Shown here in pieces: positions 3,939 through 30,507 of a DNA stretch of 52,134 nucleotides. Where the stretch lies: the NCBI GenBank assembly GCA_038881635.1, contig JAVZPJ010000001.1, forward strand, positions 234,852-286,985. The letters run 5' to 3'. Numbering within the stretch: the stretch's first letter is position 1; each line of letters begins with the position of its first letter. The notes under the pieces were generated by a model. That model saw only the letters and a program-made list of their open reading frames with translations. It had not been told where the DNA came from and searched no databases. The position numbers were made by a program, and so were the translations under genes. The DNA comes from Sulfolobales archaeon. GTDB lineage: Archaea; Thermoproteota; Thermoprotei_A; Sulfolobales; AG1.

Positions 3939-4041
<103 letters not shown>

Positions 4042-8402: not shown

Positions 8403-8981
8403 CTAGAATTTTATCCACCCAAAAGATATATATTTAATAGTGCTATCATAAACCACGGCTATGATAAGAGTCTTTCTAACACTATGACTTAATCTTCCTA
8501 CTCTCACTATATATATAGGGTTGATCTGTTCATCATACTTCATAACCTGAACTAGATACGGTGCATGCTCCATGCCAGGACCTTTCTCATACACTGTAAA
8601 GTCAACACCATACTTCATACCAGATCTAACTATAAATCCTCTATCTCTAAGATCTCTGAAGACTTGATATGTTTCTCTAAATCTAGGATCCTGAGATGCA
8701 GCATACTGTCTAAGATCCTCACAAGAGATTTTCTTCAGATTTAATAAAGGTATGGCTATACCTTTCTCACAGATATAGAGAGATTCGAGAAGTGATATTT
8801 CTAGAGGTCCTTTAAATCTCTCACCACTTCTAGGTTTTTTAACCCCGAAAGGCTTTCCGAAGAAGTGTTTTGAATAAAGCTCGTTAACGGCATCTTGATC
8901 AAATATAACGGCTTTTCCACCTAGTATATGCATCTCAAGTAGTTTCTCGCTTGATTGAAGCTTATATGGTTTATCGCTCAT
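8403..8981 (-). CDS. endA: tRNA-splicing endonuclease, catalytic subunit
   Basis: EndA cuts the bulge-helix-bulge motifs at archaeal tRNA exon-intron borders. The C-terminal half has the catalytic Tyr in MKYGVDFTVY, the His in MEHAPYLVQV and the Lys in SVRKTLIIAVV, in the expected order and spacing. The N-terminal half (residues about 1-85) is the structural domain. At 192 aa it matches the crenarchaeal catalytic subunit, which pairs with a second, non-catalytic subunit to make a heterotetramer with broad substrate range; that partner gene is not in the window. The ATG gives the MSDKP N-terminus. Confidence 0.93.
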   Translation of the reverse strand: MSDKPYKLQSSEKLLEMHILGGKAVIFDQDAVNELYSKHFFGKPFGVKKPRSGERFKGPLEISLLESLYICEKGIAIPLLNLKKISCEDLRQYAASQDPRFRETYQVFRDLRDRGFIVRSGMKYGVDFTVYEKGPGMEHAPYLVQVMKYDEQINPIYIVRVGRLSHSVRKTLIIAVVYDSTIKYISFGWIKF

Positions 8982-26826: not shown

Positions 26827-26918
26827 GGGCCCGTAGCTCAGCATGGTAGAGCGGCGGGCTCTTAACCCGTAGGCCAGGTAATGGGCGGAAGTCCCGGGTT
26901 CAAATCCCGGCGGGCCCG
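26827..26918 (+). tRNA. tRNA-Lys(CTT) with an 18-nt intron in the variable loop
   Basis: The acceptor stem GGGCCCG/CGGGCCC and the T arm CCGGG-TTCAAAT-CCCGG are perfect, and CCA is encoded at 26919-26921. The anticodon stem GCGGG/CCCGT encloses CTCTTAA, giving CTT at 26861-26863. Between AG and GTC of the variable loop there are 18 extra bases (26873-26890). They fit a bulge-helix-bulge: CCGT pairs with GCGG (one G-U), the cut bulges are AG|G and AA|G, and CCA/TGG closes the intron. Removing them restores a standard AGGTC variable loop. TTATAA lies about 30 bases upstream. Confidence 0.92.
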
Positions 26919-26921
26919 CCA

Positions 26922-30155: not shown

Positions 30156-30247
30156 ATTCACCACCACTAAACTATAATTTTATACTTCATTTAACTAAAT
30201 CGTTTATAAAATTATGTATGATCTTAAGGGGTAGAAGGTGGTAAGAA

Positions 30248-30333
30248 TGCCGCCGAGGGGATTCGAACCCCTGACCGCCCGGTATCTGATAAGCTACTTC
30301 AGCCGGGCGCTCTCCCAGCTGAGCTACGGCGGC
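30248..30333 (-). tRNA. tRNA-Phe(GAA) with a 13-nt intron
   Basis: On the minus strand the acceptor stem is GCCGCCG/CGGCGGC with A as discriminator and no encoded CCA. The T arm is AGGGG-TTCGAAT-CCCCT. The anticodon loop reads CT-GAA-G, a 13-base intron (30284-30296) and A, between CCCGG and CCGGG. The bulge-helix-bulge is textbook: CTGA of the exon pairs with TCAG of the intron, with cut bulges AG|T and AT|A. A TATA-like AATAAATAAATC lies about 30 bases upstream. The first 27 bases differ from those of the tRNA-Thr gene at one position only. Confidence 0.94.
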
Positions 30334-30507
30334 ATTCTCCTATAACTAATTCCTATGTTAGGATTTATTTATTTTCTATATAGATCTTTCTTCTGTTAAA
30401 ATAGATGTTTCATGCGTTGGTTAGATCCTGAGATCTGTTAGTGTTATAACCATATATGCTTATTTCTAGCAGAGAGAATCAGGGATATTATGAATTGCTT
30501 CTTCTTA

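What the first reader, a model, noticed from the sequence alone, without database searches (positions are those of the whole stretch)
26827..26921. tRNA-Lys(CTT) intron in the variable loop, not the anticodon loop
The 18 bases at 26873-26890 lie between anticodon-stem and T-stem, after AG of the variable loop. Only this removal restores both stems and the common AGGTC variable loop, and it gives a bulge-helix-bulge (CCGT/GCGG). Noncanonical introns are known in crenarchaea and need a broad-specificity, heteromeric EndA. The helix has one G-U pair. A very short intron (18 nt) in this loop is unusual.
Basis: partly seen in the sequence, partly recalled or inferred. Interest (0 to 1): 0.65.

Follow-up and report, generated by a model that had tools for sequence, protein, structure and literature searches.

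The report
Lysine tRNA gene with variable-loop intron
A lysine tRNA gene of a heat-loving archaeon carries an 18-base intron in an unusual but already known place; many relatives carry one at the same spot, and in Aeropyrum pernix the removal of such introns was shown by experiment.

Summary
tRNA-Lys(CUU) at 26827-26921 carries an 18-nt insert, GCCAGGTAATGGGCGGAA (26873-26890), between positions 45 and 46. It forms a bulge-helix-bulge (BHB) in which CCGU of the anticodon stem pairs with the intron's GCGG. A same-site insert occurs in 89 of 229 genomes of the class, all within the window's order. The exons are invariant, and the 94 distinct inserts compared keep the inner helix by covariation (97% paired against 63% when shuffled). 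Relatives hold contiguous, intronless copies. The genome encodes both subunits of an Aeropyrum-type (alpha-beta)2 splicing endonuclease, the catalytic one inside this window, and RtcB. In A. pernix, cDNA work showed that both tRNA-Lys introns lie in the variable arm and are spliced (PMC4307357). So this is a new member of a known kind. New detail: the Lys(UUU) twin has an identical intron, and Lys introns are often homogenised within a genome. In passing, I found probable trans-split tRNA-Lys(CUU) genes, joined at 30/31, in another family of the order; the held papers report none there.

The parts
26827..26921 (+). tRNA-Lys(CUU) gene, interrupted, CCA encoded at 26919-26921
   Evidence: ARAGORN; Rfam RF00005 63.7 bits
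26827..26872 (+). 5' exon (positions 1-45)
   Evidence: Sequence; identical or nearly identical to contiguous intronless orthologues
26861..26863 (+). anticodon CTT in a normal 7-nt loop (26859-26865), no intron at 37/38
   Evidence: ARAGORN
26867..26870 (+). CCGU: 3' strand of the anticodon stem, re-used as exon strand of the BHB central helix
26873..26890 (+). 18-nt intron GCCAGGTAATGGGCGGAA at 45/46
   Evidence: identical intron in the Lys(UUU) twin, L039
26874..26884 (+). inner helix CCA/UGG with loop GGUAA
   Evidence: Covarying pairs across 94 distinct introns
26885..26888 (+). GCGG: intron strand of the BHB central helix, same sequence as anticodon-stem 5' strand positions 27-30
   Evidence: GCGG in 93 and ACGG in 1 of 94 distinct introns; kept in searches that did not require it
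26871..26873 (+). 5' splice-site bulge AG^G
   Evidence: BHB geometry, (cleavage inferred)
26889..26891 (+). 3' splice-site bulge AA^G
   Evidence: BHB geometry, (cleavage inferred)
26891..26921 (+). 3' exon (positions 46-73 plus CCA)
8403..8981 (-). catalytic (alpha) subunit of tRNA splicing endonuclease EndA, 192 aa, with Crenarchaea-specific loop K49-P50-R51 aligned to A. pernix K44-P45-R46
   Evidence: TIGR00324 107.8 bits over cut-off; PDB 3p1z_B E 1e-46; PF01974 99.7 bits

Best explanation
The 18 bases are a non-canonical archaeal tRNA intron at position 45/46. In the precursor the intron's GCGG, a copy of the anticodon stem's 5' strand, pairs with CCGU of the stem's 3' strand and makes a bulge-helix-bulge. 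The (alpha-beta)2 EndA would cut after the second base of each 3-nt bulge (AG^G and AA^G), RtcB would join the exons, and CCGU would re-pair with GCGG of positions 27-30 to complete the anticodon stem. Shown here: the sequence, the motif, its covariation across relatives, intronless orthologues, and genes for both EndA subunits and the ligase. Inferred from A. pernix: actual cleavage and joining in this organism.
For: Same-site inserts in 87 of 214 genomes of the order with the strict pattern and 89 of 229 of the class with a looser one, all 89 in the order. 94 distinct inserts: the first two inner pairs are 97% paired against 63% (maximum 72%) in shuffles, with C-G, G-C, U-A and A-U all seen at the first pair. 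Searches that did not require CGG gave inserts with the same CGGA ending. Contiguous intronless orthologues at 96-99% identity to the spliced form. EndA alpha, EndA beta-like subunit, RtcB 578 bits. A. pernix tRNA-Lys(CUU) and (UUU): cDNAs of unspliced and spliced forms, introns in the variable arm (PMC4307357). G029 holds such introns, and its contig length of 1,669,696 fits A. pernix K1 (1,669,695 in the paper).
Against: No RNA data from this organism. At 37 C the lowest-energy fold of the precursor is not the BHB (-42.7 against -39.3 kcal/mol); at 85 C the unconstrained fold contains it. The cloverleaf stems form without removal, so the sequence of this gene alone does not force excision.
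Confidence: 0.97

Rival explanations
1. The 18 bases are kept as a long, class-II-like variable arm in the mature tRNA.
For: All four stems form with the insert present and Rfam accepts it as a variable-loop insertion.
Against: Intronless orthologues with nearly the same exons. The insert's CGG strand pairs with the anticodon stem rather than forming only its own arm, and is kept across 94 inserts while the rest changes. A. pernix tRNA-Lys introns at this site are spliced.
Confidence: 0.02
2. The gene is a pseudogene or assembly artefact with a chance insertion.
For: The genome is a draft of 18 contigs.
Against: A second gene, Lys(UUU) on contig C6, has the same intron with different flanks. 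Same-site introns occur in dozens of independent genomes. These were the only two Lys genes recognised among 45 tRNAs, so both being dead is implausible.
Confidence: 0.01

Closest known systems
[quoted passage not shown]
   Same: Same tRNAs, variable-arm site, BHB around the splice sites; spliced and unspliced cDNAs sequenced.
   Different: If G029 is A. pernix, as its size suggests, its introns are 36 nt with a longer inner helix, and the two copies differ by 2 edits; here they are 18 nt and identical in both copies.
Non-canonical crenarchaeal tRNA introns at 20/21, 29/30, 45/46 and other sites (review PMC4090602)
   Same: 45/46 is a listed site; BHB recognition by (alpha-beta)2 EndA.
   Different: Nothing essential.
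Introns of similar sequence shared among tRNAs in Thermoproteales (Fujishima 2010, as cited in PMC4033280)
   Same: Identical intron in two tRNAs of one genome.
   Different: Here it is confined to the two Lys isoacceptors, at one site and with identical exons, so gene conversion of the whole gene fits better than intron transposition.
Split tRNA-Lys(CUU) at 30/31 in Staphylothermus and Nanoarchaeum (PMC3218864)
   Same: Same tRNA, interrupted; Staphylothermus is in the same order.
   Different: Different site, and trans- rather than cis-spliced.

Membership tests
Archaeal BHB (EndA-spliced) tRNA intron, non-canonical site | Removal leaves a complete standard tRNA | tested here: met
   contiguous orthologues
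Archaeal BHB (EndA-spliced) tRNA intron, non-canonical site | 4-bp central helix flanked by two 3-nt bulges at the splice sites | tested here: met
   CCGU/GCGG with bulges AGG and AAG, one G-U pair
Archaeal BHB (EndA-spliced) tRNA intron, non-canonical site | Structure conserved by covariation while the intron sequence drifts | tested here: met
   94 distinct introns
Archaeal BHB (EndA-spliced) tRNA intron, non-canonical site | Outer helix h of a full hBHBh' motif | tested here: inconclusive
   No stable outer helix directly next to the central helix appears in the forced-BHB fold at 37 C; relaxed BHB-like motifs are accepted by some archaeal endonucleases (PMC12397907)
Archaeal BHB (EndA-spliced) tRNA intron, non-canonical site | Broad-specificity (alpha-beta)2 EndA with Crenarchaea-specific loop in the genome | tested here: met
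   Alpha at window 8403-8981, beta-like at L242:1291-1785; both match chains of the heteromer entries 3p1z and 3ajv; K-P-R of the loop conserved
Archaeal BHB (EndA-spliced) tRNA intron, non-canonical site | Actual excision and exon joining | not testable with these tools
   Shown for A. pernix tRNA-Lys in PMC4307357, not for this organism
Group I or II self-splicing intron | Catalytic core of well over 100 nt | tested here: not met
   Insert is 18 nt; among Rfam families only tRNA matched in the window

The most novel reading that the evidence does not exclude
The two tRNA-Lys genes of this archaeal order are a hot spot of repeated gene disruption. The 45/46 intron is old, has been lost and homogenised many times by gene conversion between the CUU and UUU isoacceptors, and the same CUU gene was separately interrupted at 30/31, where cis introns passed into trans-split genes in at least two families. 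The order would then give a dated series from whole gene to intron to split gene.
Probability: 0.5. Interest if true: 0.5.

Novelty: new member of a known kind. Interest (0 to 1): 0.25.

Why it matters
By itself it adds one gene to a class already proven in Aeropyrum. Its value is as a data set: dozens of species with and without the same intron in tRNA genes with nearly invariant exons, which lets intron loss, gene conversion between isoacceptors and the step from intron to split gene be traced.

Tried and rejected
The plasmid collection gave only a weak, partial match in Curtobacterium. [quoted passage not shown] Intron transposition to the UUU gene was judged less likely than gene conversion, because the whole 95-nt genes are identical except for the wobble base while the flanks differ. 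The intron pattern is tied to one Lys exon sequence, so absence from a genome can also mean a changed exon or a longer intron; this matters most for family f11. I did not build a species tree, so the numbers of gains and losses are not counted. A recurring CCTGGCC or CCTAGCC stretch in many longer introns was not explained.

Full report
What is there. The window lies in a 1.4-Mb archaeal draft genome of 18 contigs, 97% complete. Its named relatives, found with the intron pattern, are Desulfurococcales and Acidilobaceae-type MAGs, Desulfurococcaceae archaeon AG1, Ignisphaera, Aeropyrum and Zestosphaera. At 26827-26921 ARAGORN and Rfam both find tRNA-Lys(CTT). The bases 26873-26890, GCCAGGTAATGGGCGGAA, follow A44-G45 and precede G46-U47-C48. 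Without them the tRNA is standard.

Is the site right? That is not so: every stem is already present in the unspliced gene, and a range of 18-nt deletions score alike. Three other facts fix the site. First, the BHB: CCGU (26867-26870) pairs with GCGG (26885-26888), with bulges AGG and AAG and a 3-bp inner helix; shuffled inserts make both helices about once in a thousand. Second, relatives carry the same tRNA without the insert as one contiguous 74-nt stretch, 96-99% identical to the spliced form in the best cases. Third, other relatives carry inserts of other sequence at exactly this point: 87 of 214 genomes of the order with a strict pattern, 89 of 229 of the class with one that did not require the CGG, all 89 inside the order and none in 15 genomes of sister orders.

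Structure test. From the loci fetched I took 94 distinct inserts, 15 to 38 nt long (the upper end limited by the search). All end in CGGA plus A or G (GCGG in 93, ACGG in 1); the looser searches add a few ending in CGGAT. Beyond that the sequence varies, but the inner helix holds: the first two pairs are 97% paired (shuffled partners 63%, maximum 72%) and the first three 94% (57%, maximum 66%), with all four Watson-Crick types at the first pair. This is what selection for a BHB predicts.

How it works. The intron's GCGG repeats the 5' strand of the anticodon stem (positions 27-30) and competes for the 3' strand. The precursor can thus hold either the anticodon stem or the BHB, and excision lets the stem close. 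Predicted energies are close: at 37 C the BHB fold is 3.4 kcal/mol above the minimum; at 85 C it is part of the minimum. The enzyme is present. The catalytic EndA subunit lies in this very window at 8403-8981 (TIGR00324; PDB 3p1z_B E 1e-46) and keeps the K-P-R of the Crenarchaea-specific loop that in A. pernix contains K44 and R46. A diverged second subunit on contig C3 matches the structural chains 3p1z_A and 3ajv_A; that these entries are the A. pernix heteromer is my own knowledge. RtcB is on C3 as well. Cleavage and joining in this organism are inferred.

Known or new. In A. pernix, cDNAs of unspliced and spliced forms show that both tRNA-Lys introns lie in the variable arm (PMC4307357). 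Position 45/46 is a listed non-canonical site and archaeal introns of 11-129 nt are known, with medians mostly 12-25 (PMC4090602). So neither the site nor the 18 nt is surprising. The finding is a new member of a known kind.

What the comparison adds. The Lys(UUU) gene at G000:C6:77380-77471 is identical over all 95 nt (CCA included) except the wobble base, intron included, while the flanks are 55% and 27% identical. In 31 genomes with both introns, 10 have identical pairs, and in 11 of 27 genomes that have a same-genus partner the two introns of one genome are closer to each other than to either orthologue. In other genera the reverse holds (g40, g56). This points to repeated gene conversion between isoacceptors. 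A third 45/46 intron, also 18 nt, sits in tRNA-Glu(CUC) (L094).

A side finding. Within the order the Lys(CUU) gene can instead be interrupted at 30/31, by short cis introns (L050, L055-L057, L063-L064, L250) or by a split. The two halves of G023 fall on the coordinates published for S. hellenicus (PMC3218864). I found the same kind of split in family f8: G012 has the 5' half at 360,836 (+) and the 3' half at 272,858-272,901 (-), and G041 and G048 have their halves on different contigs. Each pair has complementary tails of roughly a dozen bases or more; they are specific to the genome, except that the closely related G022, G048 and G056 could exchange. G022 (f8) and G116 (f9) have the halves about 170 and 310 nt apart with long complementary tails. 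Fervidicoccaceae is my own reading of f8. The held papers give nothing for Fervidicoccus and split tRNA.

Noticed in passing
L279 and L272 (G012), L280 and L273 (G041), L277 and L271 (G048), L276 (G056, 5' half only): Probable trans-split tRNA-Lys(CUU) joined at 30/31 in family f8 (probably Fervidicoccaceae): halves 88 kb apart on opposite strands (G012) or on different contigs, with complementary tails specific to the genome or its close relatives. No held paper mentions it.
   Followed up: partly
L275 (G116) and L270 (G022): tRNA-Lys(CUU) halves about 310 and 170 nt apart with long complementary tails; a TATA-like TTTAAAAATA precedes the 3' half in L275. Either a long intron or adjacent split genes like A. 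pernix tRNA-Asp.
   Followed up: partly
L050, L055-L057, L063, L064, L250: Short cis introns at 30/31 of tRNA-Lys(CUU) whose 3' border reads CCGAG, as in the split genes of Staphylothermus and family f8; possible forerunner of the split form.
   Followed up: partly
L039:101-195 (G000:C6:77380): tRNA-Lys(UUU) identical to the window gene except the wobble base, intron included; a sign of gene conversion between isoacceptors.
   Followed up: yes
L094 (G000:C2:45951-46043): tRNA-Glu(CUC) also has an 18-nt BHB intron at 45/46: CCCG UG^A CGC GAGAG GCG CGGG AU^A.
   Followed up: yes
window 30247-30334 (-): ARAGORN names this tRNA-Leu(AAG); it reads better as tRNA-Phe(GAA) with a short intron at 37/38.
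   Followed up: partly
window 3939-4041 (+): tRNA-Thr(CGU) with a canonical intron of about 30 nt, found by Rfam but missed by ARAGORN.
   Followed up: partly
L059, L061, L062: tRNA-Lys(UUU) with an intron at the canonical 37/38 site instead of 45/46 in families f6 and f11.
   Followed up: no
introns of about 26 nt and longer at 45/46, e.g. L077, L078, L070, L075: Many longer introns share a CCTGGCC or similar stretch near the inner-helix end; function unknown, may mark common descent.
   Followed up: no
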